From contig BDDD01006374.1 in NCBI GenBank assembly GCA_001972305.1, positions 1-64,000 on the forward strand: a DNA stretch of 64,000 bases. Reading direction: 5' to 3'. Below the pieces are notes generated by a model. It was not told the origin of the DNA. It saw only the letters and a program-made list of their open reading frames with translations, and did not search any database. Origin of the DNA: Cephalotus follicularis (lineage: Eukaryota > Streptophyta > Magnoliopsida > Oxalidales > Cephalotaceae). Position 1 is the stretch's first letter; each line of letters begins with the position of its first letter. The position numbers and the translations under genes are program-made. Positions 3,327-55,431 of the stretch are shown here, piece after piece.

Positions 3327-3511
3327 TTATGAACAGTACTGTATAACTTTGGGGTTTATCCATACAAGTGATATATTTAATTGGGTATTATTCCGCATGT
3401 ATTATTATATTGTTCAAAGTTTTTAATTTCCGCTGAATAATAGTAAATAAATGATACTGTTCGTAGTGCGTCAAACCTTTGGGGTTGACCCTTGGGGTTT
3501 GGGGCGTTACA

Positions 3512-3901: not shown

Positions 3902-4488
3902 TGTTGAGTTTGGCTTAAATTTTCTGTAATTCTGTAGAATCTAGTCGACTGCCAAGGATGGGTAGTCGGCTAGATTGTTGAAGTTTGGAGTTGCATTTCA
4001 TCTGCAGAATCCAGTCGACTGTCAAGGCTGGACAGTTGACTAGAATGGTAAGATAGTCGACTGGTGTCTGATGACAGTCGACTGTCGAGTTGCGACTTGG
4101 GACTTTTATTTATATAAAACAGTCAGCTGCTTGGTGGGAGGTAGTCGACTGGTTTGTCTGTCCAGTCGGCTGCCGCGCGACTTATATAAATAGGAAAGTT
4201 TCCTTAGGGCAAAAGTAAGAGAGCAAAAGGAGAGATAGCAGCCGTCAGCCAATTTTGCACTAGAGAGTGGGTCTTTCTGGGTGTAACAAGGGCTAAGGGT
4301 TTGTGAGAAACTCATTGTAATCTCATATTTACATAGTGAAAGAACCATATCACCTCTGCCCGTGGACGTAGATCACATTGATAGAACCACGTAAATCTTG
4401 TGTCGATTTATCTTTACCGTCTTGTTGGTGTGTGCTTGATTAAACTTTGTTATAGGTTGTTAGAATTACCGAGGCTAGTTTTACAACA
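3902..4488 (+). repeat. Copia 5' LTR, unit 1
   Basis: This LTR of 587 bp has perfect TGTTG...CAACA ends. It holds at least six copies or variants of the palindrome CAGTCGACTG between about 3,943 and 4,170, and a TATA-like stretch with TATATAAATAGG just after them. The primer-binding site follows two bases after its end. Confidence 0.92.
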
Positions 4489-4490
4489 AG

Positions 4491-4502
4491 TGGTGTCAGA
4501 GA
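4491..4502 (+). other. Copia primer-binding site
   Basis: TGGTGTCAGAGA is a one-to-two-base variant of the initiator methionine tRNA complement (TGGTATCAGAGC) and starts two bases after the LTR end. The gag ATG follows at 4,527. The same site lies at 21,094 in the second copy. Confidence 0.75.
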
Positions 4503-4526
4503 CAGGTTCTTGCTTCGGGATTCAAG

Positions 4527-5385
4527 ATGTCAGCAACCAAGTTTGATATTGCGAAGTTTAATGGAACATGCGATTTTAGTATGTGGCGTGTGAAGATGCA
4601 GGCACTACTGATACAACAAGAAGTTTGGGGGCCAGTAGATGGTGAAGAAGGTTTACCTGAGAATATGTCTCAGGTGGAGAAGAAGAGGATCCTAAATAGG
4701 GCACACACATTGATTCAGTTGTGTCTGGAGGATGACGTTCTCCGTGAATTTGTGGATGAGACTACGGCGATTGGGTTATGGAATAAACTGGAGAGTCGCT
4801 ACATGACCAAGTCACTCACAAACAGGTTGTATCTCAAACAACGCATGTATACTCTGCGAATGAAGGAATGTATGTCCATAAAATAGCATATTGACAATTT
4901 TAATAAGGTGATTCATGATTTGAAGAATACAAATATTAAAATTGATAATGAAGATCAACCCTTGATCTTACTGTGTTTGTTGCCATCCTCATATGATCAC
5001 TTTGTGGATACTATGTTATATGGTAGAGACTCCATTGATGTAATGATGTTAAGGATGCATTGTAGTCTAGGGAGTTGAAGAAAAACGTGTCAGAAAATAT
5101 GTGGGAGAATCAGGCAGACGGTTTGGTAGCTAGAGGCATGAACATGGAGAGAGGGTCAGGTAAAATGGGTAAGTCACGATTTAAATCGAGAGCTAAGAAT
5201 TCGCGATGCCTTATTTGTAATGAAACTGGGCATTGAAATGTTGATTGTCCGAAATACAAGGGAATGGGAATAGCTAAAGGGAATAAAATCGAAGCTAATG
5301 CAGGAGTTGTGCATGAAAGTTCGGATGAAGCTGATTCAAATTTAGTTCTGTCTGTTAGCGTAAATAACACAGTAGTTGGATTCTT
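4527..5385 (+). pseudogene. Copia gag, degenerate (unit 1)
   Basis: Gag coats element RNA in cytoplasmic particles. The first 119 codons are open from an ATG that closely follows the primer-binding site. They show the copia gag opening pattern of a short FNG core, then an SMWRVKMQALL segment and a W-N-KLESRYMTKSLTNRLYLKQRMYTLRM helix region. A TAG interrupts the frame after codon 119. Further downstream a CCHC zinc knuckle is readable as CLICNETGH, stop, NVDC (about 5,207-5,249). The expected Trp codon there has become TGA at 5,234-5,236, and copy 2 shares that stop. It is not functional as it stands. Confidence 0.85.
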
Positions 5386-6690
5386 TATTCGGGATGTTCT
5401 TTTCACATGACACCTAACAGGGATTGGTTCACCACCTATGAAGTCAATGAGGGGAAAGTTCTGTTGGGGGACAACAATGCATTGAAGGTTTTCAGATGTG
5501 GGAAAGTTCAGATCAAGATGTTTGACGGTGTGATTAGAACTTTGGAAGCTTGGCATGTTCCGAGGCTAACGAAAAACCTGATTTCCTTGGGGGTTCTAGA
5601 TTCTCATGGTCGCAAGTTTACCGGGGAGAATGGGATAATCAAAGTACTTAGGGGTGCTCTTGTTATTATGAAGGGAAAGAAGATCGATGGCCTATATTAG
5701 CTGTAGGGGAATACCGTGCTGGGTACTGCAGCAGTTGCTTCTTCATCAGGGGATAAAGATGCAGATACTACTCGACTTTGGCATATGCGTCTGGGGCATA
5801 TGAGTGAGAGAGGGTTGCAAATTCTATCCAAGAAGGGTTTGCTCGCTAGAGTGAAGTCAGAGAAACTGGATTTCTGTGAGCATTGTGTGTATGGAAAATA
5901 GTGTAGGGTGAAATTCAGTACTGCCATTCACAGGACCAAAGGTATTTTTGATTATATTCATTATGATCTTTGGGGTCCCTCGTCACATATGTCACTTGGA
6001 GGAAGCCGGTATTTAATGACCTTGATTGATTACTACTCTACAAAGGTCTGGACATATTTCTTGAAGAGTAAAGATGAGGCGTTTGTCAAGTTAAAGCAGT
6101 GAAAAACCATGGTAGAGAAGAAAACGGGAAGCGTGGTCAAAACTCTATGGACTGACAATGGTTTGGAGTACTGCTCGGAGGAATTTGACAAGTTCTGCAA
6201 GGATGAAGGTATAGTGAGACACCACACTGTATGAAAAACACCACAACAAAATGGAGTTGTAGAACGGATGAACAGAACGTTATTAGAAAGAGCACGCTGC
6301 ATGCTTTCTAATGCTGGACTCTCTAAGAAGTATTGGGCTGAGGCAATTCATACAGCAGCTTACCTGGTAAATAGGTCTCCATCAACAGCCATTGAGTTAC
6401 AGACTCCACAGGAGGTATGGTCAGGTATCGCGGGTGATTATTCTGGGTTGAAAGTATTTGGTTGTCCTGCATATGCTCACGTGAATGATGGTAAACTTGA
6501 GCCGAGGGCAAACAAGTGCATATTTCTAGGATATGCGAATGGGGTGAAAGGGTATCGGTTGTGGTGGATTGAAAATCCCAAGTCGTCAAAATTTCTTATT
6601 AGCAGAGATGTGACATTTGATGAGTCTGCCATGGTCAACCAGAAGGAGAAGTTTGAGAATGGTGAGAAAGACCTTGGTGTAGAGAAATAG
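5386..6690 (+). pseudogene. Copia protease tail and integrase, degenerate (unit 1)
   Basis: Copy 2 reads through the protease active-site region, but here two bases are missing near 5,366, so the frame breaks just before HMTPNRDWF. The following blocks are the post-protease domain, the GAG-pre-integrase zinc region (RLWHMRLGHMSERGL...CEHCVYGK), and the integrase core with DLWGPS, the LWTDNG Asp block and TPQQNGVVERMNRTLLERAR. They end in the conserved WAEAIHTAAYLVNRSPS and KVFGCPAY motifs. In-frame stops lie at positions where family members have Trp or Gln (for example after KIDGLY, after CVYGK and after KLKQ). A further TGA lies before KTPQQNG, in this copy only. The integrase cannot be made as one protein. 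Confidence 0.88.
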
Positions 6691-6724
6691 GTAGAGCTTA
6701 ATCTAGAAGCTCCGGGAAGGGAAG

Positions 6725-7303
6725 ATGAAGCTTCTTCCAGCCAGTCAACTCAAACCGAATTGCAATATCAGGATGAGGATGGAGCACTTCAGGAGCAACA
6801 ATATAGTATTTCTAGAGGTAGAGAGAGGAGGCAGATTAGACCACCATCAAGATACAGTCATGCGGGTAGCTTTTGCTTTGTCAGTCGAGAAAAGTGTTGA
6901 AGAAGAGGAACCATACACTTATAAGGAAGCAGTGAAAAGCAAAGAATCAACAGAGTGGGTAACTACCATGAATGAAGAAACTCAATCTCTTGAAAATAAC
7001 AAGACTTGGGAGTTGGTAAAGATGCCAAAGGGGAAACGGGTTGTAGGCTGTAAGTGGATTTTCAAGAAAAAGGAAGGTACACATGGGGTTGAGGCAAAAA
7101 GGTTCAAGGCACAGTTAGTAGCAAAGGGTTTTACTAAGAAGGAGGGAGTGGACTTTCATGAAGTATTTTCTCCAGTTGTGAAGCATAGCTCGATCCGTGC
7201 ATTACTCGCTATGGTTGCTTGTCAAGACTTGGAACTTGAGCAACTGGATGTCAAGACAGCGTTCTTACATGGTGAGTTGGATGAACAGATTTATATGGCC
7301 CAA
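6725..7303 (+). pseudogene. Copia reverse transcriptase, N-terminal part (unit 1)
   Basis: This is the RVT_2-type reverse transcriptase start. It carries EAVKSKESTEWVTTMNEE, the KWIFKKK block, FKAQLVAKGF, VDFHEVFSPVVKHSSIRALLA and the LDVKTAFLHGELDEQIYM catalytic segment. The frame is open up to the insertion of a solo LTR at 7,304 and resumes after it at 9,946. The upstream residues, which come from the linker to integrase, are read in another frame in the longest ORF. Confidence 0.9.
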
Positions 7304-8547
7304 TGTCACACCCCGTGTTCCATAAACAATATATATGACAAAGGCAAATAACATTGAACATTCAGCTTATGCAAAATACCATAAAATCTAAACTTTTAAA
7401 CAGGATAACATTGCGGAAGCATTTAAAACCATAAGCTGAAAAGCACATAACGTGCATCCCATACTACACGTTACCAAAATACATGTCTGTCATAGTTAAA
7501 AGCCCACGAAACGGAGCGTGATCAAAATACATAATCCGTCAACATAAAACTTAACCAACAGAAGTACGGTACGTAACTTTCATTTATTACATAGTAGCTC
7601 ATGAAAATCCAAAAGAACATAACCCCAAAAAAAACATTATTAAAACTTGTCCTTCGTCCATGCTGAACCATATCGGTGTCCACTGCATCAATCTGTAAAG
7701 TAGGGGGTTAGCCTTTGTCCTCACTCGGCTAAGCATAAGTGCAATTTGGGGTCAATATTAAATGCATGTCATGTAATGTATGCATAGTGATGCAGTACAG
7801 TAAAATAACAGTTTATACGTATGTGAAAAAATATATATATATATCAACAGTACAATAGTAACCCGGCCAGGGCTACGTCATCAGTAACAGCAGTGTCATT
7901 GAGGACCAGCAAATAGTATACAGTATGTCCACAAAGGGACTAACAAGCAGTCAGTCAGTACGAACAACGTCGCCAACTCCTGGCCCCACATCACACTCCT
8001 AACTTTGGCCCCACCTCCGGACGGCACGAAGTAGGCCACAGTACAGTACAGTGAGTTACCCACCCAACTCCTGGCTTCTAGGTCAACCCTGCCACTAGTC
8101 ATCGCTGGCAATCTCCGCCACACAACTAGTACGACGCAAACACAAACACAACCCAAACACAGCATAGTCACAGTGCAAACATAGTAACAGTACAGTTCAA
8201 GCAATTTTATAAAATAATTACTTGATCAAAGTATATCAGTTTACTTCAAGTCATAAAAATTAATTGAAATCATGCATTTCCATCTCATAGAAAATACTTT
8301 AAACAGTAAAAGTATTGGGATTCATTCCCCAGTTTGTTCGAAAATATGCATTTGTCTAATGTATATTTTCGTACTTAAATAATGATTTTTGAAATCATAT
8401 AAGCATTTCTAAAATATTGAAGCAATTTTAGAAACTAAACACAGTCAATAAACAGTACGTATGCAATGCATACAAATTCTCTAATGCACCATAACTGAAA
8501 TCGGGATCATTTCGTATCATTTAAGCGAGAATTATCCAAACAGTGTC

Positions 8548-8770
8548 TTAAAGCGTCGATATTTAACCCTTGGGCGTCGGCGCTTATTTCCTCTAAGCGT
8601 CGACGCTCAATCCTTAGCGTCAGCGATTTCCAGTACCTAAGGCATTGATGTTTACTCCTTAGGCGTCGACGTTATAATATAAAGCGTCTATGGTTCTCAT
8701 GCATTCAGTAGCAATATCACATTTTACAGTCCCAAGCGTCGATACTTATACCAGAGCGTCGACGGTTACG
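8548..8770. repeat. Palindrome cluster with GTCGAC core in solo LTR (first cluster)
   Basis: Variants of AAGCGTCGACGCTT recur at about 8,551, 8,570, 8,596, 8,662, 8,733 and 8,755. A second cluster of the same motif lies at about 9,597-9,750. The same layout is present in the second solo-LTR copy near 25,155-25,370 and 26,195-26,345. Confidence 0.8.
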
Positions 8771-9319
8771 TGCACAGTTCGTCTTCTTTCTCACGACGTT
8801 ACCAAACCAGAGGACTCCCAACCAACATACATGTAATTCGACATGCAATATATCCAGGAAAATGACATGCAATGACAGATTACACATCCAGTAAAACATG
8901 GCATCAATTCAGTGATAAAAAACAGTCAAAAAAGCCATGCAATCCACGCATAAACATCACTGATCAAACACTAAAAATTGAACACAAAATACAATTATGG
9001 CTTCCCCTACCTCTGGCTTCAAGTTAGAAGCCGAAAGTCCACTACTTTTAGTACTCAATCCAGTCACTTCGAGCTCCCATGTTCGGTCTAGATGCTCCCA
9101 GGTTCACTCCAGCAGTTGTTGTTCGAGCTCCAAGCTCTCCCTTGCTCAACAATGGAGTTTGAGCTTCTCTATCTCTACACCTTCTCTGATTTTCTCTCAC
9201 TTTCTGTGTTTCTCTCCAGTCTCTGGTTTCTCATTCACAGTAACAGACGAGAGAGATGAGAGGAGCCGATTTTATGCATTTCCCTTTTGTTTTTCTCTGC
9301 ATGCATTCATTGATTCCTT

Positions 9320-9367
<48 letters not shown>
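9320..9367. repeat. CT microsatellite
   Basis: An uninterrupted CT dinucleotide run lies in the solo LTR. The homologous run at about 25,924-25,962 is shorter. The Arg-Glu and Ser-Leu repeat ORFs across it are not genes. Confidence 0.95.
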
Positions 9368-9370
<3 letters not shown>

Positions 9371-9945
9371 ACCTGGTGCAACAGGTGTCCATTTCTTCCT
9401 TCTCCCAGTTCATGCATGCTCAGAACCCCACTCATAGCTGCCTCTTTTCAGTCCTTCCCAGTCCTGGAAAGTCAGGCGTCACATAGCATGCATTACACGT
9501 ATCAAAACGTGTGTGAAGGCGTCTGAAGGGTGGCGTGAACATGCCCCCATGCGACACGTTCGCCTGCTGTTAGTGTGTTTCTGGAATGCGACACAAAGCA
9601 TCGATGCTTTTATTTAAGCGTCCGCGCTTTGGTGTGTTGTGCGAATGGCGTTGACACGTATACTGTGCGTCGACGTTTTGGCCATTCATAAAACACGTGC
9701 GCATTTTGGTTGGTAAGGCATCGACGCTTTGGTTTAAGGCGTCGACGCTTAAGCCATTTTTCCTCATTCTTTCAAAGTAAGGCAAAAGTTTAACATTTCT
9801 TGATGTTCCCTATCTCAAAATCAACATTATACAAAAGGGAAAACATCATCAAAGTTGGGATATCCATCATTTTATTAATTTCAAGATAAAATTACATTAA
9901 CATAGTAAAATTACAATATCGGAAAATCCAGGGCGTTACACCCAG

Positions 9946-11118
9946 CAAAAAGGTTATTATTTTTCAGGGAAAGAAGATAATGTGTGTCTACTGAAGAAAT
10001 CCTTGTATGGATTGAAACAATCTCTTAGACAGTGGTATAAAAGGTTTGATACTTTTATGATCAAGAACAGTTATTTTCGATGTGAGTATGATAGCTGTGT
10101 GTACTTGAAGAAACTCCCGGATGATTCTTTTGTATATCTGTTGCTATATGTTGATGACATGTTGATGGCATCAAAGGGTAAATTAGAGATTAACAAATTG
10201 AAGGCTCAGTTAAGCAGTGAATTTGAAATAAAGGATTTGGGTGCAGCCAAGAAGATATTGGGTATGGAGATTCAAAGGGAACTTCAAGTTAGACGGTTAT
10301 ATGTATCTCAGAAAAAATATATCGAGAAAATGCTTGAGAGGTTTGGAATGGAAAAGTCTAAACCAGTAAGTACTCCGTTAGCTGGACATTTCAAATTTTC
10401 AGATTCATTATCGCCAAAGATTGAGGCTGAGGTGGAGCACATGGCTCGTGTTCCATATGCTAGTACAGTTGACAGTATGATGTATGCCATGGTGTGCACT
10501 AGGCCAGATATTTCACATGATATGAGTGTGGTTAACAGGTATATGGATAATCCAGGGGAAGCTCACTGGGATGCTGTGAAATGGATAATGAGGTACTTGA
10601 GAGGTTCTACAGATGTTGGGTTAGTCTATGGTAGCGGTGGAGCTGCTAGTGTGGATGTTGTGGGCTATTCGGATTCTGATTATGCGGGGGACATGGATAA
10701 GTGGAGATCCCTCACGGGGTATGTTTTCACTTTGTCAGGCTGTGCAGTTAGTTGGAAGGCAACTTTGCAACCAACAGTGGCCTTGTCTACGACGAAGGCG
10801 GAATACATGGCATTGACTGAGGCAGTGAAAGAAGCTATCTGGTTGTGTGGTTTGGTTGGTAGTATTGGTTTGATACAGCAGATTTTAACGGTGTATTGTG
10901 ATAGCCAAAGTGCCATTCATTTGAGTAAGAATCAGATGTTTCATGAGAGAACCAAGCACATTAGTGTCAAATATCATTTCATTCGGGATGTTATCGAAGG
11001 GGGTGAAATTGCAGTTCAGAAGATAGCCATGGCCAAGAATCCAGCTGATATGTTGACTAAACCGGTTCCTGGAGAAAAGTTCAAGCTTTGCTTGAACTTA
11101 ATTGGATGTTGTAGATAA
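9946..11118 (+). pseudogene. Copia RT C-terminal part and RNase H (unit 1), open frame
   Basis: This continues the RT interrupted at 7,304. It runs through CLLKKSLYGLKQS, the YVDDMLMA catalytic box with both aspartates intact, DLGAAKKILGMEI, and the TRPDISHDMSVVNRYM block. RNase H follows with YSDSDYAGDMD, KAEYMAL, YCDSQSAIHLSKN and HERTKHISVKYHF, ending LNLIGCCR-stop. No stop interrupts this segment, which makes it the best preserved coding part of the element. It serves as the reference for decoding the A-rich block at 27,202 in the other copy. It still lacks a start and is cut off from the rest of pol. Confidence 0.92.
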
Positions 11119-11181
11119 GCTCTTGGGGATGACAGATGTGGTGATGTGGAGTAGCTGATGTGAAGGTTGGAAAAATTTGAT

Positions 11182-11194
11182 CCAAGGTGGAGAT
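11182..11194 (+). other. Polypurine tract of copia unit 1
   Basis: CCAAGGTGGAGAT directly precedes the 3' LTR start, the usual place for plus-strand priming. Confidence 0.75.
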
Positions 11195-11624
11195 TTTTTT
11201 AGTTTGGCTTAAATTTTCTGCAATTCTGCAGAATCCATTCGACTGCCAAGGATGGGTAATCGGCTGGATTGTTTAAGTCTAGAGCTGTCTTTCATCTATA
11301 AAATCCAGTCGGGTGTCAAGGATGGACAGTCGACTGGAATGGTAAGACAGTCGACTGTCGAGTTGCGACTTGGGACTTTTATTTATATAAAATAGTCAGC
11401 TGTTTCGGGAGACAGTCGGCTGCCTGGTGAGAGGCAGTCGACTGGTTTGTTTGTGTAGTCGGCTGTCGCGCGACTTATATAAATAGGAAAGTTTCCTTAG
11501 GGAAAAATCAAGAGAGCAAAAGGAGAGATAGTAGCCGTCAGTCGATTTTGCACTAGAGAGTGGGTCTTTCTGGGTGTAACAAGGGCTAAGGGTTTGTGAG
11601 AAACTCATTGTAATCTCATATTTA
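11195..11624 (+). repeat. Copia 3' LTR, truncated at duplication junction
   Basis: The LTR matches 3,902 onward but its first bases are altered to TTTTTTAG. It stops at CTCATATTTA (11,624), where the complete 3' LTR of copy 2 continues CATAGTGAAAG. From 11,625 the sequence is the gypsy LTR beginning TATACATTAAATGAGC. Confidence 0.88.
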
Positions 11625-14205
11625 TATACATTAAATGAGCAGTGGATGGCGTAATGCTTGGCACGACCACGTCCGAGACGGGTTCTCCCTCTACGCCCGA
11701 GCACGCACCTATTCGACCCGAGCGACGCACCCGTTAGCAGGTCACGACCAAATGGCCGAGATCCCCATCATTATGGGTCCGAGCATGGCTAGGTGTTGAA
11801 CCCCTCGTTGGTCGGCGCCGAGCTCTCCATCCATCAAGGACCTGTTAATGACCCGAGGTGCCATTGCTAGTCCTACCCGGGGTGCCATCCCTTGTGCCGA
11901 GGAGAATGCGCCAAGGAGCGTAGGAGCATACCATGGCGTTGAGCAGTGAATGCCCGAGATACCGGGGCTGCACTGTGCGCACGAGCTCCCATACCCGAGC
12001 TGCCAGGGGTGCCGAGGATCCATACCCAAGCTACTATGGTGCCGAGGAGCATAAGTGCTGAGCTCCCCTGTCCATACCAGAGCATCCATGTCTGCCAAAC
12101 CCGAGCTCACCAAGTAGGCCTCCACGCATGCGCCCAAGCTTGTCCTCTACCATGCATGCATGGAGCCCTTCTCTGCTTGGTGTCAGCGTCGAGCACGTCC
12201 TGCATGCACCTGAGCATGCTGTGCGGTGCTCCTAGGCGTTCCATGCATGCGTCCAAGCTTGCATACGCCGAGCATGCCAAGATGGTACCCAGACAAGCAT
12301 GCATATGCCGAGGATGCCAGATGCCCAGCTCTTCACTGCTCATAGTACTTATCCTGAGCATGCATCCATGCACTGAGCATGCCGAGCATGCAATGTCATA
12401 ACTGAAGCTCTGGCAGCGCCCGATCATGCAATGCATGCGAGTTCTCCACTGTCCATATGTCCGAGATGTCATGTCAGAGCTCTCCCGTGCCACACTCAAG
12501 CACACCATGCACCCGATTTCTCTTGAGCTCTCCACTGGTGTGTGCCGAACCCTCCTTTGCATGTATCCTGAGCCTCCATGGTGTGCGAGATGATAAGTGA
12601 CGAACAACATTCCTCATGTCATGCGTTGTAGCCTGCGAAATGGAAGACAATTGTACTGTGGTTCGCCTGTATGAGCGCAGTGCATGCGAGCATGTGCTCG
12701 GGTAGTGCATGGTAATGTCTCCAGGCATGCATGACCCTGTAGCATGCGCTATATGCCCGACCTTAATGCTTGGATGTATAATGCAACTGAAAAATGGATT
12801 ATGATAATGATAAGCACAGTATAATAATGATAATTACAGTAAAAATGATGCGGAGTAGGCATGCATTGTGCCTTGCATGAGAACATGCATGCATCCAAAG
12901 GGTGATGCATTGTATGCCGAGTGTAGCCTGCGCCAATAGTCTTCCCACTTGTGCCTTAAGTGATGACATGATGGCTGTGTGTAGGAAAAGTATATATTAA
13001 TTAAAAGGGGGTATAAGTGCAATGAATTATAAATGATAAAGGATAGTGTAATATAGCTTAGTGTAAAATAAGGAAGGCAGACCCTACAGTGAATGGAAAT
13101 GTAGTGTTAGTATAATGTATTGTACTGTTACTGTAATATTAATGTATTGTTAATGTAGTGTCAATGTACTGTACTGTGCCTAATCACCAATTGAGATGAG
13201 CTGACTGATCATCGATTGAGATGAGCCGTCAGATCACCGATTGAGATGAGCCGGCAAGGCTATCTTTGAGATAAGCCTACGGGATCACCGAGATAGCCCA
13301 ATGGATCACCGACCGATATGAGCCGTTGGATCACCAACTGAGATGAGCCGACTGATCACCGACCGAGATGAGCCACACTGACTGTTACTGTTACTGTTAT
13401 TGTCACTGTTACTGTTACTGTTACTGTTACCGTATAGTGTTTATGTTCCTCTCCTCCGCCTATAACGCCTAGAGCGCGTCTATTGCTCTTCCTACAGCCG
13501 AGGAACCTGAGGAACCGGTCTGCCTAAAATGTAATGATTATTCCTGTTGTGGCTCCTCTGCCTTAACGTCTAGAGTGTGTTATTGCTCCTCCTTTAGTAG
13601 GGGGATGTCGAGGAAGGATTTATTATGACGATTAATGATTGTGAATGATTGTTAATGACTGTTGAGGACTGATACAGAATGAATGACTGTTAAGGAATGA
13701 TACAGAATGGATCGTACTGTCATTGACTGCTAGTAGAGAATGAATGAAGTGTTATACTGTACTGTTATTATTGCATCTCATTGCATTGCTTATTGCCTGC
13801 TACATCTGCATCTCCATGCATGAGTGGGTGGTAGTTCCTACACGACCAATGGTTGCTAACCCATTGCATTTTAATGTAATGGGTCAAGTACAAGTGGAGC
13901 TTCACAGCAAGCTGAGGATTGAAGCCCTGAGTGAATCTCCTCCCTTTCATTGCAGTTCGACGACCCAAGAAGTATAGTGATAAATTATTGTATGACCTGC
14001 CGGCTTGTGGCAGAGCTCCATTATGAACAGCATTGTATAACTTTTGGGTTTATCCACACAAGTGATATATTTAATTGGGTATTATTCCACATGCATTATT
14101 ATATTGTTCAAAGTTTTTAATTTCCGCTGAATAATAGTAAATGAAAGATACTGTTTGTAGCGCGTCAAACCTTGGGGGTTGAACCTTGGGGTTTGAGGCG
14201 TTACA
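11625..14205 (+). repeat. Gypsy 5' LTR, left-truncated
   Basis: It is homologous to 16,828-20,095 from that copy's TATACATTAAATGAGC (about 17,414) onward, so roughly the first 590 bp are missing. It ends GAGGCGTTACA. It has a single copy of the 158-bp 3' unit, and at 12,400-12,700 one copy of the segment that is doubled in LTR copy A. Confidence 0.88.
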
Positions 14206-16827: not shown

Positions 16828-19800
16828 TGTAATACCCGAAATTTTATAATATAAAAATAGCTGTTGGACTGGACAGAATTGGATTAATGGAAATTGGGCT
16901 TTAAATGTGTTATTGGTATTGGGCCTATTGTTATGAATATAATTAAAAGAAAAAAAAGTAGAGATATTGGGCCTTAATTGGATAAATGGTGTTGATATTG
17001 ATTGGGCTCGGAGATATTTATTAAAGGCCCGAATTAGTGTTGAAAGTGGTAGAAATGTGTAGCAAATGCTAGAACCTTCCTTGAATTGGCTATAAAAAGG
17101 AAGGGAGAGAGTGGAGTGGGGCTGTTGACAAATTGGGAGAGAAAGAGACACCAGGAAGCTACCAGTAAAGGAATAAGGAAGAGGAATCGGAGGAGACAAT
17201 GAGCAATTAAGGGAAGTGTGCTGAGCGAAGGACAGTGCAGTAACCTCGTCAATCCAGGTAGGATCTACCTCATACTCAGTACTTCCATTTGTATGTAAAT
17301 TGTTATGATTGGAATTAGGCTAAGCATGGGAATGATAAATGAGTGTTAGCCCTCTGGAATGAGTATGGGAATTATATATGTATTAAATTTTATATATATA
17401 TATATATATACCTGTATACATTAAATGAGCAGTGGATGGCGTAATGCTTGGCACGACCACGCCCGAGACGGGTTCTCCCTCTACGCCCGAGCACGCACCT
17501 ATTCGACCCGAGCGATGCACCTGTTAGCAGGTCAAGACCAAATGGCCGAGCTCCCCATCATTATGGGTCCGAGCATGGCTAGGTGTTGAACCCCTCGTTG
17601 GCCGGCGCCGAGCTCTCCATCCATCTAGGCCCCTGTTAATGACCCGAGGTGCCATTGCTAGTCCTACCCGGGGTGCCACCCCTTGTGCCGAGGAGAATGA
17701 GCCGAGGAGCGTAGGAGCATACCATGGTGTCGAGCAGTGAACGCCCGAGATGTCGAGGCTGCATTGTGCGCATGAGCTCCCATACCCGAGCTGCCAGGGG
17801 TGCCGAGGATCCATACCCAAGCTACTATGGTGCCGAGGAGCATAAGTGCCGAGCTCCCCTGGCCATACCCGAGCATCCATGTCTGCCAATCCCGAGCTCA
17901 CCAAGCAGGCCTCCACGCATATGCCCAAGCTTGTCCTCTGCCATGCATGCACGGAGCCCTCCTCTGCTTGGTGTCAGCGTCGAGCACGTCCTTCATGCAC
18001 CTAAGCATGCTGAGTGGTACTCCCAGGTGTTACATGCATGCATCCAAGCTTGCATAAGCCAAGCATGCCAAGATGGGACCCAGGCAAGCATGCATATGCC
18101 GAGGATGCTAGATGCCCAGCTCTTCACTGCTCACAGTACGCATCCTGAGCATGGCAAGCATGCTACGTCATAGCTGAAGCTCTAGCAGCGCCCGAGCATG
18201 CAATGCATGCGAGTTCTCCACTGTCCATGCATCCGAGATGCCATGCCGGAGCTCTCCCCTGCCGCACTCAAGCACACCATGCACCTGATTTCTCTTGAGG
18301 TCTCCACTGGTGCGTGCCGAACCCTCCTCTGCATGTATCCTGAGCGTGCATGGCATGCGAGACGGTAAGTGACGAACAGCGTTCCTCATGTCATGCGTTG
18401 TAGCCTACGAAATGGAAGACAGCTGTACTGTGGTTCGCCTGTATGAGCGCAGTGCATGCGAGCATGTGCTCGGGTAGTGCATGGTAATGTCTCCGGCATG
18501 CATGGCCCTGTTGCATGCGCTATGTGCCCGACCTTAATGCCTGGATGTATAATGCAACTAAAAAATGGATTATGATAATGATAAGCACAGTATAATAATG
18601 ATAATTGCAGTAAAAATGATGCGGAGTAGGCATGCACTGTGCCTTGCATGAGAACATGCATGCATCCAAAGGGTGATGCATTGTATGCCGAGTGTAGCCT
18701 GCGCCAACAGTCTTACCACTTGTGCATTAGGTGATGACATGATGGTTGTGTGCAGGAAAAATATATATTAATTAAAAAAGGGGTATAAGTACAATGAATT
18801 GTAAATGATAAAGGGAAGTGTAATATAGCGTAGTGTAAAATAAGGAAGGCAGACCCTACAGTGAATGGAAATGTAGAGTTAGTATAATGTATTGTAATGT
18901 TACTGTAATATTAATGTATTGTTAATGTAGTGTCAATGTACTGTACTGTGCCTGATCACCAATTGAGATGAGTTGACTGATCACTGATTGAGATGAGCCG
19001 TCGGATCACCAATTGAGATGAGTCGGCAAGGCTATCTTTGAGATGAGCCTACGGGATCACCGAGATATCCCAATGGATCACCGACCGAGATGAGCCATCG
19101 GATCACCAACTGAGATGAGCCGACTGATCACCGACCGAAATGAGCCACACTGACTGTTACTGTTACTGTTACCTTATAGTGTTTATGTTCCTCTCCTCCG
19201 CCTATAACGCCTAGAGCGCGTCTATTGCTCTTCCTACAGCCGAGGAACCAGTCTGCCTAAAATGTAACGATTATTCCTGTCCCGGCTCCTCTGCCTTAAC
19301 GTCTGGAGTGCGTTATTGCTCCTCCTTTAGTAGGGGGATGCCGAGGAAGGATTTATTATGACGATTAATGATTGTGAATGATTGTTAATGACTGTTGAGG
19401 ACTGATATGGAATGAATGACTGTTAAGAAATGATACGGAATGGATCGTACTGTCATTGATTGCTAGTAGCGAATGAATGAAGTGTTATTCTATACTGTTA
19501 TTATTGCATCTCATTGCATTGCATATTGCCTACTACATCTGCATCTCCATGCATGAGTGGGTTGTAGTTCCTACACGACCAATGGTCGCTGACCCATTGC
19601 ATTTTAATGTAATGGGTCAGGTACATGTGGAGCTTCACAGTAAGCTGAGGATTGAAGCCCCGGGTGAGTCTCATCCCTTTCATTGAAGTTCGAAGACCAA
19701 AGAAGTATAGTGATAAATTATTGTATGACCTGACGGCTTGTGACAGAGCTCCATTGAATTTTAACGTAATGGGTCAAGTACAAGTGGAGCTTCGCAGCAA

Positions 19801-20095
19801 GATGAGGATTGAAGCCCCGGGTGAGTCTCCTCCCTTTCATTGCAGTTCGATGACCCAAGAAGTATAGTGATAAGTTATTGTATGACCTGACAGCTTGTGG
19901 CAGAGCCCCATTATGAACAGTATTGTATAACTTTGGGGTTTATCCACACAAGTGATATATTTAATTGGGTATTATTCTGCATGCATTATTATATTGTTCA
20001 AAGTTTTTAATTTCCGCTGAATAATAGTAAATAAATGATACTGTTCATAGTGCGTCAAACCTTTGAGGTTGACCCTTGGGGTTTGGGGCGTCACA
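16828..20095 (+). repeat. Gypsy 3' LTR, complete (3,268 bp)
   Basis: It starts TGTAATACCCGAAATTTTA and ends GGGGCGTCACA, so the ends are near-perfect inverted TGTAA/TTACA. It carries a TA microsatellite at about 17,380-17,412, CATGC-rich DNA, the 25-bp array and two 158-bp units. This is the only full-length copy in the window and defines what the other two copies lack. Confidence 0.92.
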
Positions 20096-20485
20096 TCTTA
20101 GATGCAAAGTTCTTATGAGTCCCACATTGCCATCATACCACTGTTTTCTCAACAATACAAAGAGAAGAAACTAGACTTTGTGTTGTCATTGACTAGAGTG
20201 ATTTTGATGAATTTTCTCTTGTCCCAGTACCTATTAATGAGGTCAATAAGGATGATAATTTGAAAGAGGGTGTTGATAATCAAAGCACAATTGATAATAA
20301 AGATAGTTGTTAATAGAGACACAACTGGACTAGCCCATGTGCCGGTTCACAGGTCAACTCGTAATTCAAAGCCTTCAACTCGACTTTGGGATTTTTTTCA
20401 CCTACCATGCTACTCAGCATCCCATTCATGCTTGTGATTGTTATGATAATGTTTCTCCCAAGTTCTTGAGTTTTCTATTTGTTAT
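20096..20485 (+). pseudogene. Old copia polyprotein remnant, left part (unit 2)
   Basis: It is homologous to 3,512-3,901. It reads a copia integrase-RT spacer in fragments, with HRSTRNSKPSTRLWDFF and YDNVSPKFLSFLFVIV, and ends at GTTAT (20,481-20,485). The same frame resumes after the younger element at 28,382, so both pieces belong to one older element split by the insertion. Confidence 0.7.
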
Positions 20486-21091
20486 TGTTGAGTTTGGCTT
20501 AAATTTTCTGTAATTCTGTAGATCTAGTCGACTGCTAAGGATGGGTAGTCGGCTAGATTGTTGAAGTTTGGAGCTGTATTTTATCTGCATAATCCAGTCG
20601 ACTGTCAAGGATGGACAGTTGACTGGAATGGTAGGATAGTCGACTGGTGTCTGATGACAGTCGACTGTCGAGTTGCGACTTGGGACTTTTATTTATATAA
20701 AACAGTCAGCTGTTTCGGGAGACAGTCGGTTGCCTGGTGGGAGGTAGTCGACTGGTTTGTCTGTGCAGTCGGCTGCCGCGCGACTCATATAAATAGGAAA
20801 GTTTCCTTAGGGAAAAAGTAAGAGAGCAAAAGGTGATATAGCAGCCGTCAGCCGGTTTTGTACTAGAGAGTGGGTCTTTCTGGGTGTAACAAGAGCTAAG
20901 GGTTTGTGAGAAACTCATTGTAATCTCATATTTACATAGTGAAAGAACCATATCACCTATGCCCGTGGACGTAGATCACATTGATAGAACCACGTAAATC
21001 TTGTGTCGATTTATCTTTACTGTCTTGTTGGTGTGTGCTTGATTAAACTTTGTTATAGGTTGTTAGAATTACCGAGGCTAGTTTTACAACA
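20486..21091 (+). repeat. Copia 5' LTR, unit 2
   Basis: The ends are TGTTG...CAACA. It is about 20 bp longer than the unit 1 copy because of a segment near 20,710. It holds the same CAGTCGACTG palindrome series. Confidence 0.92.
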
Positions 21092-21129
21092 AGTGGTGTC
21101 AGAGACAGGTTCTTGCTTCAGAATTCATG

Positions 21130-21985
21130 ATGTCAGCAACCAAGTTCGATATTGTGAAGTTTGATGGAACATGCGATTTCAGTATGTGGCGTGTGAAGAT
21201 GTAGGCACTACTGATATAACAAGAAGTTTGGGGGCCAATAGATGGTGAAGAAGGTTTACCTGAGAATATGTCTCAGGTGGAGAAGAAGAGGATCCTAAAT
21301 AGGGCACACACATCTATTCAGCTGTGTCTGAAGGATGACGTTCTCCGTGAATTTGTGGATGAGACTACGGCGATTGGGTTATGGAATAAACTGGAGAGTC
21401 GCTACATGACCAAGTCACTCACAAACAGGTTGTATCTCAAACAACGCATGTATACTCTGCGAATGAAGGAAGGTATGTCCGTAAAATAGCATATTGACAA
21501 TTTTAATAAGGTGATTCATTATTTGAAGAATACAAATATTAAAATTGATGATGAAGATCAAGCCTTGATCTTACTGTGTTCGTTGCCATCCTCATATGAT
21601 CACTTTGTGGATACTATGTTATATGGTAGAGACTCCATTGATGTAATGATGTTAAGGATGCATTGTAGTCTAGGGAGTTGAAGAAAAAAGTGTCAGAAAA
21701 TATGTGAGAGAATCAGACAGACGGTTAGGTAGCTAGAGGCAGGAACAGGGAGAGAGGGTCAGGTAAAATGGGTAAGTCACGATCTAAATCGAGAGCTAAG
21801 AATTCACGATGCCTTATTTGTAATGAAACTGGGCATTGAAATGTTGATTGTCCGAAATACAAGGGAAGGGGAATAGCTAAAGGGAATAAAATCGAAGCTA
21901 ATGCAGGAGTTGTGCATGAAAGTTCGGATGAACCTGATTCAAGTTTAGTTATGTATGTTAGCGTAAATAACACTAGTAGTTGGAT
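21130..21985 (+). pseudogene. Copia gag, degenerate (unit 2)
   Basis: It starts at the same MSATKFD position as copy 1. This copy has its own early stops, TAG and TAA, where copy 1 reads Gln (M-Q-ALL and LI-Q-QEVW), so they are CAG-to-TAG and CAA-to-TAA changes. The TAG after codon 119 of copy 1 and the TGA inside the CCHC knuckle are shared with copy 1, so those two stops predate the duplication. Confidence 0.85.
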
Positions 21986-23294
21986 TCTTTATTCAGAATG
22001 TTGTTTTCACATGACACCTAACAGGGGTTGGTTCACCACCTATGAAGTCAATGAGGGGAAAGTTTTGTTTGGGGACAACAATGCATTGAAGGTTGTCGGA
22101 TGTGGGAAAGTTCAGATCAAAATGTTTGACGGTGTGATTAGAACTTTGGAAGCTTGGCATGTTCCGAGGCTAAAGAAAAACCTGATTTCCTTGGGGGTTC
22201 TAGATTCTCATGGTCGCAAGTTTACCGGGGAGAATGGGATAATCAAAGTACTTAGGGGTGCTCTGGTTATTATGAAGGGAAAGAAGATCGATGGCCTATA
22301 TTAGCTGCAGGGGAATACCGTGCTAGGTAATGCAGCAGTTGCTTCTTCATCAGGGGATAAAGATACAGATACTACTCGACTTTGGCATATGCGTCTGGGG
22401 CATATGAGTGAGAGAGGGTTGCAAATTCTATCCAAGAAGGGTTTGCTAGCTGGAGTGAAGTCAGGGAAACTTGAGTTCTGTGAGCATTGTGTGTATGGAA
22501 AATAGTGTAGGGTGAAATTCAGTACTGCCATTCACAAGACCAAGGGTATTTTGGATTATATTCATTATGATCTTTGGGGTCCCTCGTCACATGTGTCACT
22601 TGGAGGAAGCCAATATTTAATGACCTTGATTGATTACTACTCTACAAAGGTCTGGACATATTTATTGAAGAGCAAAGATGAGGCGTTTGTCAAGTTCAAG
22701 CAGTGAAAAACCATGGTAGAGAAGAAAACGGGAAGCGTGGTCAAAACTCTATGGACTGACAATGGTTTGGAGTACTGCTCGGAGGAATTTGACAAGTTCT
22801 GCAAGGATGAAGGTATAGTGAGACACCACACTGTAAAAAAAACACCACAACAAAATGGAGTTGTAGAACGAATGAACAGAACGTTATTAGAAAGAGCACG
22901 CTGCATGCTTTCTAATGCTGGACTCTCTAAGATGTATTGGGCTGAGGCAATTCATACAGCAGCTTACCTGGTAAATAGGTCTCCATCAACAGCCATTGAG
23001 TTACAGACTCCACAGGAGGTATGGTCAGGTATCGCGGGTGATTATTCTGGGTTGAAAGTATTTGGTTGCCCTGCATATACTCACGTGAATGATGGTAAAC
23101 TTGAGCCGAGGGCAAAGAAGTGCATATTTCTAGGGTATGCGGATGGGGTGAAAGGGTATCGGTTGTGGTGGATTGAAAATCCCAAGTCGCCAAAATTTCT
23201 TATTAGCAGAGATGTGACATTTGATGAGTTTGCCATGGTCAACCAGAAGGAGAAGTTTGAGAATGGTGAGAAAGACCTTGGTGTAGAGAAATAG
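21912..23294 (+). pseudogene. Copia protease and integrase, degenerate (unit 2)
   Basis: The protease active-site region reads SWILYSECCFHMT where the family has Asp-Ser-Gly, so both Asp (now Tyr) and Gly (now Glu) are lost. The GAG-pre-integrase block (HMRLGHMSERGL...CEHCVYGK) and the integrase core (LWTDNGLEY, TPQQNGVVERMNRT) follow. Three stops between the blocks fall at family Trp or Gln codons and are shared with copy 1. The last 193-codon stretch (22,713-23,294) is continuously open, from the central integrase through KVFGCPAY and the C-terminal KCIFLGYADGVKGYRLW segment. Protease inactivity alone would stop processing. Confidence 0.88.
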
Positions 23295-23328
23295 GTGGAG
23301 TTTAATCTAGAAGCTCCGGGAAGGGAAG

Positions 23329-23907
23329 ATGAAGCTTCTTCCAGCCAGTCAACTCAAACCGAATTGCAATATCAGGATGAGGATGGAGCACTTCAGGAGC
23401 AACAGTATAGTATTGCTAGAGGTAGAGAGAGGAGGCAGATTAGACCACCATCAAGATACAGTCATGCGGGTAGCTTTTGCTTTGTCAGTCGAGAAAAGTG
23501 TTGAAGAAGAGGAACCATACACTTATAAGGAAGCAGTGAAAAGCAAAGAATCAACAGAGTGGGTAACTACCATGAATGAAGAAACTCAATCTCTTGAAAA
23601 TAACAAGACTTGGGAGTTGGTAAAGATGCCAAAGGGGAAACGGGTTGTAGGCTGTAAGTGGATTTTCAAGAAAAAGGAAGGTACACATGGGGTTGAGGCA
23701 AAAAGGTTCAAGGCACAGTTAGTAGCAAAGGGTTTTACTAAGAAGGAGGGAGTGGACTTTCATGAAGTATTTTCTCCAGTTGTGAAGCATAGCTCGATCC
23801 GTGCATTACTCGCTATGGTTGCTTGTCAAGACTTGGAACTTGAGCAACTGGATGTCAAGACAGCGTTCTTACATGGTGAGTTGGATGAACAGATTTATAT
23901 GGCCCAT
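23329..23907 (+). pseudogene. Copia reverse transcriptase, N-terminal part (unit 2)
   Basis: It is nearly identical to 6,725-7,303 and includes KWIFKKK, FKAQLVAKGF, FSPVVKHSSIRALLA and LDVKTAFLHGELDEQIYM. It is cut by the solo LTR at 23,908. An overlapping frame at 23,295-23,504 is the linker from integrase. The near identity suggests the duplication is recent compared with the insertion. Confidence 0.9.
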
Positions 23908-25921
23908 TGTCACACCCCGTGTTCCATAAACAATATATATGGCAAAGGCAAATAACATTGAACATTCAGCTTATGCAAAATACCATAAAATCTAAACTTT
24001 TAAACAGGATAACATTGCGGAAGCATTTAAAACCATAAGCTGAAAAGCACATAACGTGCATCCCATACTACACGTTACCAAAATACATGTCTGTCATAGT
24101 TAAAAGCCCACGAAACGGAGCGTGATCAAAATACATAATCCGTCAACATAAAACTTAACCAACAGAAGTACGGTACGTAACTTTCATTTATTACATAGTA
24201 GCTCATGAAAATCCAAAAGAACATAACCCCAAAAAAAACATTATTAAAACTTGTCCTTCGTCCATGCTGAACCATATCGGTGTCCACTGCATCAATCTGT
24301 AAAGTAGGGGGTTAGCCTTTGTCCTCACTCGGCTAAGCATAAGTGCAATTTGGGGTCAATATTAAATGCATGTCATGTAATGTATGCATAGTGATGCAGT
24401 ACAGTAAAATAACAGTTTATACGTATGTGAAAAAATATATATATATATCAACAGTACAATAGTAACCCGGCCAGGGCTACGTCATCAGTAACAGCAGTGT
24501 CATTGAGGACCAGCAAATAGTATACAGTATGTCCACAAAGGGACTAACAAGCAGTCAGTCAGTACGAACAACGTCGCCAACTCCTGGCCCCACATCACAC
24601 TCCTAACTTTGGCCCCACCTCCGGACGGCACGAAGTAGGCCACAGTACAGTACAGTGAGTTACCCACCCAACTCCTGGCTTCTAGGTCAACCCTGCCACT
24701 AGTCATCGCTGGCAATCTCCGCCACACAACTAGTACGACGCAAACACAAACACAACCCAAACACAACATAGTCACAGTGCAAACATAGTAACAGTTCAGT
24801 TCAAGCAATTTTATAAAATAATTACTTGATCAAAGTATATCAGTTTACTTCAAGTCATAAAAATTAATTGAAATCATGCATTTCCATCTCATAGAAAATA
24901 CTTTAAACAGTAATAGTATTGGGATTCATTCCCCAGTTTGTTCGAAAATATGCATTTGTCTAATGTATATTTTCGTACTTAAATAATGATTTTTGAAATC
25001 ATATAAGCATTTCTAAAATATTGAAGTAATTTTAGAAACTAAACACAGTCAATAAACAGTACGTATGCAATGCATACAAATTCTCTAATGCACCATAACT
25101 GAAATCGGGATCATTTCGTATCATTTAAGTGAGAATTATCCAAACAGTGTCTTAAAGCGTCGATATTTAACCCTTAGGCGTCGGCGCTTATGTCCTCTAA
25201 GCGTCGATGCTCAATCCTTAGCGTCAGCGTTTTCCAGTACCTTAGGCGTTGATGTTTACTCCTTAGGCGTCGACGTTATAATATAAAGCGTCTATGGTTC
25301 TCATGCATTCAGTAGCAATATCACATTTTACAGTCCCAAGCGTCGATGCTTATACCAGAGCGTCGACGGTTATGTGCACAGTTCGTCTTCTTTCTCATGA
25401 CGTTACCAAACCAGAGGACTCCCAACCAACATACATGTAATTTGACATGCAATATATCCAGGAAAACGATATGCAATGACAGATTACACATCCAGTAAAA
25501 CATGGCATCAATTCAGTGATAAAAAACAGTCAAAAAAGCCATGCAATCCACGCATCGACATCACTGATCAAACACTAAAAATTGAACACAAAATACAATT
25601 ATGGCTTCCCCTACCTCTGGCTTCAAGTTAGAAGCCGAAAGTCCACTACTTTTAGTACTCAATCCAGTCACTTCGAGCTCCCAGGTTCGGTCTAGATGCT
25701 CCCAGGTTCACTCCAGCAATTGTTGTTCGAGCTCCAAGCTCTCCCTTGCTCAACAATGGAGTTTGAGCTTCTCTATCTGTACACCTTCTCTGATTTTCTC
25801 TCACTTTCTGTGTTTCTCTCCAGTCTCTGGTTTCTCATTCACAGTAACAGACGAGAGAGATGATAGGAGCCGATTTTATGCAGTTCCCTTTTGTTTTTCT
25901 CTGCATGCATTCATTGATTCC

Positions 25922-25966
<45 letters not shown>

Positions 25967-26536
25967 ACCTAGTGCAACAGGTGTCCATTTCTTCCTTCTC
26001 CCAGTTCATGCATGCTCAGAACCCCACTCATATCTGCCTCTTTTTAGTCCTTCCCAGTCCTAGCAAGTCAGACGTCACATAGCATGCATTACACGTATCA
26101 AAACGCGTGTGAAGGCGTCTGAAGGGTGGCGTGAACATGCCCCCATGCGACACGTTCACCTGCTGTTAGTGTGTTTCTGGAATGCGACACAAAGCATCGA
26201 TGCTTTTATTTAAGCGTCTGCGCTTTGGTGTGTTGTGCGAATGGAGTTGACACGTATACTGTGCGTCGACGTTTTGGCCATTCATAAAACACGTGCGCAT
26301 TTTAGTTGGTAAGGCGCCGGCGCTTTGGTTTAAGGTGTCGACGCTTAAGCCATTTTTCCTCATTCTTTCAACGTAAGGTAAAAGTTTAACATTTCTTGAT
26401 GTTCCCTATCTCAAAATCAACATTATACAAAAGGGAAAACATCATCAAAGTTGGGATATCCATCATTTTATTAATTTCATGATAAAATTACATTAACATC
26501 GTAAAATTACAATATCGGAAAATCCAGGGCGTTACA
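23908..26536 (-). mobile_element. Solo LTR inserted in copia RT (unit 2)
   Basis: This is the same insertion as 7,304-9,940, at the homologous site. The right duplication is CCCAG (26,537-26,541) and the left is CCCAT (23,903-23,907). In unit 1 the left one is CCCAA. The last base has therefore changed differently in the two units, and the insertion is older than the tandem duplication. Confidence 0.9.
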
Positions 26537-26541
26537 CCCAG

Positions 26542-27201
26542 CAAAAAGGTTATTATTTTTCAGGGAAAGAAGATAATGTGTGTCTACTGAAGAAATCCTT
26601 ATATGGATTGAAACAATCTCATAGAAAGTGGTATAAAAAGTTTAATACTTTTATAATCAAGAACAGTTATTATCGATGTGAGTATGATAGCTGTGTGTAC
26701 TTGAAGAAACTCCCGGATGATTCTTTTGTATATCTGTTGCTATATGTTGATGACATGTTGATGGCATCAAAGGGTAAATTCGAGATTAATAAATTGAAGG
26801 CTCAGTTAAGCAGTGAATTTGAAATAAAGGATTTGGGTGCAGCCAAGAAGATATTGGGTATGGAGATTCAAAGGGAACTTCAAGTTAGACGGTTATATGT
26901 ATCTCAGAAAAAATATATCGAGAAAATGCTTGAGAGGTTTGGAATGGAAAAGTCTAAACCAGTAAGTACTCCGTTAGCTAGACATTTCAAATTTTCAGAT
27001 TCATTATCGCCAAAGATTGAGGCTGAGGTGGAGCACATGGCTCGTGTTCCATATGCTAGTACAGTTGACAGTATGATGTATGCCATGGTGTGCACTAGGC
27101 CAGATATTTCACATGATATGAGTGTGGTTAACAGGTATATGGATAATCCAGGGGAAGCTCACTGGGATGCTGTGAAATGGATAATGAGGTACTTGAGAGG
27201 T
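26542..27201 (+). pseudogene. Copia RT C-terminal part (unit 2)
   Basis: RT resumes after the solo LTR. LYGLKQS, YVDDMLMA and the TRPDISHDMSVVNRYM block are intact, and the protein is readable up to WIMRYLRG. At 27,202 coding sense is lost abruptly. Compared with unit 1, seven differences clustered at about 26,600-26,665 are all changes to A (from G, T or C). RNase H cannot be read from this copy. Confidence 0.9.
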
Positions 27202-27724
27202 AAAAAAAAAATAGGATAAAAAAAAGAAAAAGAAGAAAAAAAAAAAAAGAAAATAAAGGAAAATAAGAATAAAAATAAAAAGGGGAAAAAGAAAAAAAGA
27301 AAAACCAAAAAGGGAAAAATTTAAAATTAAAAAGAAAAAAAAATAAATAGAAAGAAAAATTAAAAACAAAAAAAGACATAAAAAAAAAAAAAGAAGAAAA
27401 AAAAGAAATAAAAAAAGAAAAAAAAAAAAAAAAAAAGATAAAAAGATTAGATAGAAAAAATAGATTAAAAAAAAAAAATTTAAAAGAAAAATAAAAAAAA
27501 CAAAAAAACAATAAATTAAAAAAAAAAAAAAAAATTAAAAAAAAAAACAAAAAAAATAAAAAAAAAAAAAAATTAAATAAGGAAAATAAAAAAAGGAGAA
27601 AAAATAAAAATAAAAAAAAAAACAAAGACAAAAAAACAAAAAAAAAAATAAAAAAAACAGATACTAGAAAAAAAATAAAAAATTAAATAAAAATAAATAG
27701 AAAATAAAAAAAAAAAAATAGGGA

Positions 27725-27756
<32 letters not shown>

Positions 27757-27790
27757 AAAAGATAAAAAAAATTAAAACAAAGAAGAAAAT
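27202..27790. other. A-replaced copy of copia RNase H and polypurine region
   Basis: This block is overwhelmingly A with scattered G, T and C. At a constant offset of 16,596 to 10,606-11,194, every non-A base I checked (about 60 across 27,202-27,480, for example GGGG at 27,282-27,285 and CC at 27,305-27,306) equals the base in the intact copy. The length is also preserved. It is therefore the RNase H sequence with most C, G and T written as A, not an inserted poly(A) tract. The Phe- and Lys-rich ORFs here are meaningless. Sparse changes to A continue into the 3' LTR as far as about 28,150. Confidence 0.95.
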
Positions 27791-28376
27791 TTTTTAAATT
27801 AGAATAAATTTTCTACAATTCTGCAGAATCCAATCGACTGCCAAGGATGGATAATCGGCTGGATTGTTTAAGTCTAGAGCTGTCTTTCATCTATAAAATC
27901 AAGTCGGGTGTCAAGGATGGACAGTCGACTGGAATGGTAAGACAATCGACTGTCGAGTTGCGACTTGGGACTTTTAATTATATAAAAAAGTCAGATATTT
28001 AGGGAGACAGTCGGCTGCCTGGTGAGAGGCAGTAGACTGGTTTGTTTGTGAAGTCGGCTGACGCGCGACTTATATAAATAGGAAAGTTTCCTTAGGGAAA
28101 AATCAAGAGAGCAAAAGGAGAGATAGTAGCCGTCAGTCGATTTTACACTAGAGAGTGGGTCTTTCTGGGTGTAACAAGGGCTAAGGGTTTGTGAGAAACT
28201 CATTGTAATCTCATATTTACATAGTGAAAGAACCATATCACCTCTGCCCGTGGACGTAGATCACATTGATCAAACCACGTAAATATTGTGTCGATTTATC
28301 TTTACTATCTTGTTGGTGTGTGCTTGATTAAACTTTGTTATAAGTTGTTAGAATTACAGAGGCTAGTTTTACAACA
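27791..28376 (+). repeat. Copia 3' LTR, unit 2
   Basis: It aligns with 11,195-11,624 and with the 5' LTR, and ends TTTTACAACA before GTTAT. Against unit 1, the fourteen substitutions I could list between 27,806 and 28,150 all change to A, from G, T and C alike. The density falls from left to right. Confidence 0.9.

Positions 28377-55398: not shown

Positions 55399-55431
<33 letters not shown>

What the first reader, a model, noticed from the sequence alone, without database searches (positions are those of the whole stretch)
27202..27790. RNase H region rewritten as A: a base-for-base A-substituted copy of the paralogue
The block looks like poly(A) junk but is not. At a constant offset of 16,596, every non-A base I checked (about 60, without exception) matches the intact copy at 10,606 onward, and the length is kept. 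C, G and T have all become A on one strand. Known genome mutators do not do this: cytosine deaminases change only C/G, and diversity-generating retroelements change A into other bases, the reverse. Two readings remain. (1) A consensus or base-calling artefact in which unresolved positions were written as A; this is the most likely. (2) Copying across a strand full of abasic sites, where polymerases insert A opposite each gap (the A rule), possibly during reverse transcription or repair. The effect is graded: nearly total in the block, sparse in the flanks, gone further out.
Basis: partly seen in the sequence, partly recalled or inferred. Interest (0 to 1): 0.93.

Follow-up and report, generated by a model that had tools for sequence, protein, structure and literature searches.

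The report
Off-by-one sequence overlay, assembly artefact
The strange A-filled stretch is what a computer produces when two near-identical copies of a plant-type transposon are laid over each other one letter out of step and every disagreement is written as A, so it is almost certainly an assembly error and not biology.

Summary
At offset 16,596 the block is an A-substituted copy of the intact paralogue at 10,606: 120 of 121 non-A bases match. But the substitution follows a strict rule. A base survives only if the paralogue's next base is identical; otherwise A. This reproduces 593 of 597 positions; eleven other shifts give 406-444. Last bases of C, G or T runs never survive (0 of 91); earlier run bases do (120 of 123).

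That is what results when two near-identical sequences are overlaid without gaps, one base out of register, with disagreements written as A. Two further results fit. The offset drops by one at the right edge, 27,804-27,808. The flanks, where the overlay is back in register, differ from the paralogue mainly by N-to-A: 8 of 10 left, 14 of 15 right.

The most likely source is an ungapped merge of two haplotypes or copies of a Ty1/copia element during assembly. The software was not identified, and neither reads nor the rest of the assembly could be examined.

The parts
27202..27808 (+). out-of-register part of the overlay: base kept if the next base of the paralogue is identical, otherwise A. Fitted start 27,201-27,202 (a TT pair in the paralogue), fitted end 27,804-27,808 (TTAAA)
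   Evidence: 593 of 597 positions of 27,202-27,798 follow the rule; breakpoints fitted
26601..27201 (+). left in-register part of the overlay: N-to-A at 26601, 26621, 26626, 26639, 26644, 26655, 26672 and 26980; two other differences at 26781 (A to C) and 26790 (C to T). The left limit lies between 26,500 and 26,601
   Evidence: 8 of 10 substitutions are N-to-A
27809..28145 (+). right in-register part of the overlay: all 14 differences from the paralogue are N-to-A; none of these A's is seen in the other copies of the window aligned there (three copies at ten sites, two at four). One further difference at 28,220 (T to C), three bases before the homology ends, is not N-to-A
28225..28376 (+). 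possible further extension of the overlay: 5 of 6 positions where both other aligned copies agree against this one read A (background 4 of 21)
   Evidence: with 28,378 included 5 of 7, one-sided Fisher P 0.02
10005..11628 (+). intact paralogue used as the yardstick (3' end of a Ty1/copia pol ORF, 9982-11118, and sequence downstream of it)
26578..27219 (+). RVT_2 ORF of the affected copy; it runs into the overlay block and is cut short there

Best explanation
The block is an assembly artefact. Two near-identical sequences (two haplotypes, or two copies of the same Ty1/copia element) were laid over each other without gaps and merged base by base: agreement was kept and disagreement became an unknown that was finally written as A. 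Relative to the paralogue, one sequence lacks one base at the TT pair at 27,201-27,202 and the other lacks one base in TTAAA at 27,804-27,808. Outside these points the two are in register and only real differences become A; between them they are one base out of register, so only bases equal to their neighbour survive. Shown: the neighbour rule, the offset change, the N-to-A flanks. Inferred: the merge, its compensating one-base deletions, and that an unresolved symbol (N or an IUPAC code) was turned into A by a two-bit or 'index 0' encoding (recalled as a common pitfall, not tested). Because non-A differences from the 10-kb copy are few (2 in the left flank, 1 in the right), one overlaid sequence was probably nearly identical to that copy (inference).
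For: Shift +1 reproduces 593 of 597 positions; shifts -6 to -1 and +2 to +6 give 406-444. Kept with identical next base: C 13/13, G 48/51, T 59/59; kept with unlike next base: 0/69, 0/127, 0/123; last bases of runs kept 0 of 91. The four exceptions (27,597; 27,665; 27,736; 27,765) are each what one base difference between the two sequences would give (inference). The offset falls by one at the right edge; the fit leaves 7 mismatches in 27,100-27,880, which are the four exceptions and three N-to-A flank sites. Flanks: 8 of 10 left and 14 of 14 right (to 28,145) are N-to-A, against 62 of 208 in the rest of the 9-kb duplicated pair (binomial P 0.0015 and 4e-8) and 6 of 19 just left of the overlay. 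Runs of seven or more consecutive substitutions to or from one base were sought in seven pairs on both sides for all four bases: two were found, both N-to-A, one of them at 26,601-26,672. Adjacent unlike non-A pairs in the block: 1 observed, 14.2 expected under random retention with a minimum of 3 in 2,000 runs.
Against: No reads and no other part of the assembly could be examined: the genome search did not answer in six tries. Two of ten left-flank differences (26,781; 26,790) and the last of fifteen right-flank differences (28,220) are not N-to-A; they need to be shared by both overlaid sequences or to lie outside the overlay. Left-flank N-to-A changes are clustered (7 in 72 bases, then 1 in 529), which uniform divergence does not predict. 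The other run of seven N-to-A found (19,686-19,802) is not clearly an overlay, so such runs may occasionally arise otherwise. The responsible program was not found in five literature searches.
Confidence: 0.97

Rival explanations
1. Consensus artefact from low depth or quality: positions without a reliable call were written as A independently of one another.
For: Also gives N-to-A only, with kept bases matching the paralogue.
Against: Which positions are kept is fixed by the next base: all 120 kept bases are in the same-next class, and 10,000 shuffles reach at most 49. It does not predict the one-base offset change at the edge.
Confidence: 0.01
2. Homopolymer-related sequencing or base-calling error in one copy: all but the last base of each run is read and the rest is called A.
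For: Mathematically the same rule inside the block.
Against: Does not explain the T at 27,665, the offset change at the right edge, or the mainly N-to-A differences in both flanks.
Confidence: 0.015
3. Templated copying across abasic sites (A rule) during reverse transcription or repair of a damaged retrotransposon.
For: C, G and T all go to A on one strand.
Against: 318 of 319 bases with an unlike next base changed to A while 120 of 123 with an identical next base were kept; I know of no damage chemistry with that dependence. The offset change is unexplained.
Confidence: 0.002
4. Genuine poly(A) or microsatellite expansion in the element.
For: Another A-rich stretch lies in the window at 55,371-55,460.
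Against: The block keeps base-for-base register with the paralogue over about 600 bases.
Confidence: 0.001

Closest known systems
Flattening of assembly bubbles (heterozygous or repeat alternatives) into one ambiguity-coded consensus
   Same: Two alternative sequences are merged position by position and disagreements marked as ambiguous
   Different: Here disagreements end as A rather than N or IUPAC codes, and the merge is out of register over about 600 bases; the program was not identified
Silent conversion of non-ACGT symbols to A in two-bit sequence encodings (recalled)
   Same: Any unresolved symbol becomes A
   Different: Conversion alone does not say which positions were unresolved; the misregister does
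Ty1/copia LTR retrotransposon, TNT 1-94-like (the underlying element)
   Same: RVT_2 domain in both copies and close, full-length protein relatives
   Different: The element looks like an ordinary member; what is unusual is only its sequence as assembled here

Membership tests
Ungapped two-sequence overlay artefact | Inside the block a base is kept only where the paralogue equals itself shifted by a fixed number of bases | tested here: met
   Shift +1: 593 of 597; the eleven other shifts tested 406-444
Ungapped two-sequence overlay artefact | Register relative to the paralogue changes by the same shift across the block | tested here: met
   Offset 16,596 before, 16,595 after, change at 27,804-27,808
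Ungapped two-sequence overlay artefact | In-register flanks differ from the paralogue mainly by N-to-A | tested here: met
   8 of 10 left; 14 of 15 right to 28,223, 14 of 14 to 28,145
Ungapped two-sequence overlay artefact | Raw reads show two intact sequences and none with the block | not testable with these tools
   no reads held
Abasic-site / A-rule mutagenesis | Change to A independent of the identity of the 3' neighbour | tested here: not met
Cytidine-deaminase or RIP-type hypermutation | Only C (or, on the other strand, only G) changed | tested here: not met
   T, G and C all changed to A
Ty1/copia retrotransposon (underlying sequence) | RVT_2 reverse transcriptase with Ty1/copia relatives | tested here: met
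   E 2e-25 and 1.8e-26 in Pfam; 5,887 of 8,000 scored candidates at E up to 1e-20, 120 listed, several named Ty1/copia-type
Ty1/copia RNase H domain in the block | Match to an RNase H family downstream of RVT_2 | tested here: inconclusive
   No Pfam match there and no NCBIfam match above its cut-off; one weak PDB match (flagellar protein, E 0.0076) lies elsewhere in the ORF; the label rests on recalled gene order and motifs

The most novel reading that the evidence does not exclude
The merging step that made this block left many more scars in the same assembly, and in others built the same way. Most would be in-register overlays without any A-rich block, visible only as runs of false N-to-A substitutions in repeats and heterozygous regions; they would bias transposon dating and mutation spectra and could pass unnoticed.
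Probability: 0.35. Interest if true: 0.35.

Novelty: not a real feature. Interest (0 to 1): 0.13.

Why it matters
The block says nothing about mutation or transposon biology. It does give a compact fingerprint for one kind of assembly error: an A-rich stretch in which neighbouring non-A bases are nearly always alike, flanked by differences that are mainly N-to-A. That fingerprint can be searched for without reads, and such stretches should be masked before repeats are dated or mutation spectra are drawn.

Tried and rejected
Random or quality-driven replacement, A-rule copying, deaminase-type hypermutation and microsatellite expansion were weighed against the neighbour rule and the register and rejected. 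Eleven other shifts reached at most 444 of 597.

Other overlays in the window: seven self-paralogous pairs were examined, six of the 27 rows that one search listed plus one pair (3916-4488 with 20500-21091) that I formed myself; the other rows were not examined for this. Besides 26,601-26,672, one run of seven N-to-A differences came up, at 19,686-19,802. At five of its seven sites no third copy was aligned; at the other two the third copy has A (19,783) and C (19,802), so it stays undecided. The A-rich stretch 55,371-55,460 has no paralogue in the window by its flanks and could not be decoded.

Counts corrected while checking: the right flank to the end of homology has 15 differences, 14 of them N-to-A, not 14 of 14; the possible extension is 5 of 6 within the homology (to 28,376), 5 of 7 with 28,378, and 6 of 8 in the recount to 28,380.

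Literature: five searches. One search found no paper; the others listed 15 of 147, 10 of 181, 2 of 2 and 8 of 20. Nothing in the titles and abstract starts described such an artefact; no paper was opened, so this is weak evidence of absence. Solved-structure and NCBIfam searches gave nothing useful.

Full report
Observation. At offset 16,596 the block 27,202-27,798 aligns without gaps to the intact paralogue 10,606-11,202. Of 442 paralogue positions that are C, G or T, 120 are kept, 321 are A and one is another base; no paralogue A is changed. The window holds a 9-kb duplicated segment (1,559-10,605 against 18,170-27,201, 97.0% identical), and the block begins exactly where that alignment ends.

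The rule. The alignment shows that TT becomes TA, GGG becomes GGA, CCC becomes CCA, and single bases become A. Position i keeps its base if the paralogue has the same base at i+1, and is A otherwise. This holds at 593 of 597 positions, and at 438 of the 442 that are not A in the paralogue. Shifts -6 to -1 and +2 to +6 give 406 to 444 of 597. By base, same-next bases are kept in 13/13 (C), 48/51 (G) and 59/59 (T) cases, and unlike-next bases in 0/69, 0/127 and 0/123; the last base of a run of two or more is never kept (0 of 91). In 10,000 random retentions with the same per-base counts, the number of kept bases in the same-next class was 35 on average and 49 at most, against 120 observed. A second statistic agrees: the block has one adjacent pair of unlike non-A bases, against 14.2 expected if bases of the paralogue were retained at random.

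What makes such a rule. It is the position-by-position agreement of a sequence with a copy of itself shifted by one base, with disagreement written as A. Three further consequences of such an overlay were looked for. First, the register should change by one across the block: the best-fitting model has offset 16,596 up to 27,201-27,202, agreement from there to 27,804-27,808, and offset 16,595 after that. Both edges lie in short runs (TT and TTAAA). Second, where the two sequences are in register, only their real differences should read A. In the right flank the 14 differences at 27,815-28,145 are all N-to-A, and a fifteenth at 28,220, three bases before the homology ends, is T to C. None of the 14 A's is present in the other copies aligned there, three copies at ten sites and two at four, where the 3.9-kb copy has a gap. 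In the left flank 8 of 10 differences at 26,601-27,201 are N-to-A. The background is 62 of 208 in the rest of the 9-kb pair and 6 of 19 at 25,971-26,600. Third, exceptions inside the block should look like single differences between the two sequences. There are four (27,597; 27,665; 27,736; 27,765); the only non-A one, T at 27,665, is what results if the unshifted sequence has T where the paralogue has C, the next base being T (inference).

Extent. Left of 26,601 the differences are of mixed type, so the overlay starts between 26,500 and 26,601. On the right, 5 of 6 positions at 28,225-28,376 where both other copies agree against this one read A, against 4 of 21 such positions at 27,809-28,145 where the 11.2-kb copy supports this one; counted with 28,378, 5 of 7 gives a one-sided Fisher P of 0.02. 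So the overlay may reach about 28,360; this is suggestive only. From 28,593 the next paralogous pair shows no excess (A in 18 of 54 differing positions of the first copy, 20 of 54 in the second). The overlay is thus about 1.5-1.8 kb, of which about 605 bases are out of register.

What was overlaid. The sequence is the 3' part of a Ty1/copia pol gene and the region downstream. Pfam RVT_2 matches both copies (E 2e-25 and 1.8e-26). A protein search found 5,887 relatives at E up to 1e-20 among the 8,000 candidates it scored; of the 120 listed, those given with a full species name are flowering plants (the grouping is recalled). That the window is from a plant is inferred from this. The block covers the last 45% of the ORF, by recalled gene order the RNase H part, though no family model matched there, and 94 bases beyond the stop. 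Since non-A differences from the 10-kb copy are few (two on the left, one on the right), one overlaid sequence was probably almost identical to that copy and the other somewhat diverged; this is inference. The clustering of left-flank N-to-A changes (7 in 72 bases, then 1 in 529) is not explained by uniform divergence.

Mechanism and limits. Shown: the neighbour rule, the register change and the mainly N-to-A flanks. Inferred: an ungapped merge of two sequences with compensating one-base deletions, an ambiguous symbol at each disagreement, and its conversion to A. Recalled and not tested: that some assemblers flatten bubbles in this way and that two-bit encodings can turn non-ACGT into A. The program was not identified; five literature searches listed nothing that describes the artefact (titles and abstract starts only, no paper opened). 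The rest of the assembly could not be searched, so how common such scars are is unknown.

Verdict. It is not a biological feature.

Noticed in passing
window 55371-55460: A second A-rich stretch (78 of 90 bases A) in which none of the three multi-base non-A runs mixes bases, as an overlay would give; its flanks have no paralogue in the window, so it cannot be decoded and may be an ordinary poly(A) tract.
   Followed up: partly
window 19686-19802: Seven consecutive differences from 3102-3218 are all N-to-A. A third copy could be aligned at two of the seven sites and has A at one and C at the other; undecided as another in-register overlay.
   Followed up: partly
window 6725-11118 and 23329-27219: In both copies of the 9-kb duplication two ORFs about 2.6 kb apart match successive parts of the RVT_2 profile (about 1-101 and 114-242), as if the reverse transcriptase gene were interrupted by an insertion that was duplicated with it.
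   Followed up: no
window 59024-59962: ORF matching Pfam Transposase_28, 'Putative gypsy type transposon' (E 8.7e-07), so another kind of transposable element lies in the window.
   Followed up: no
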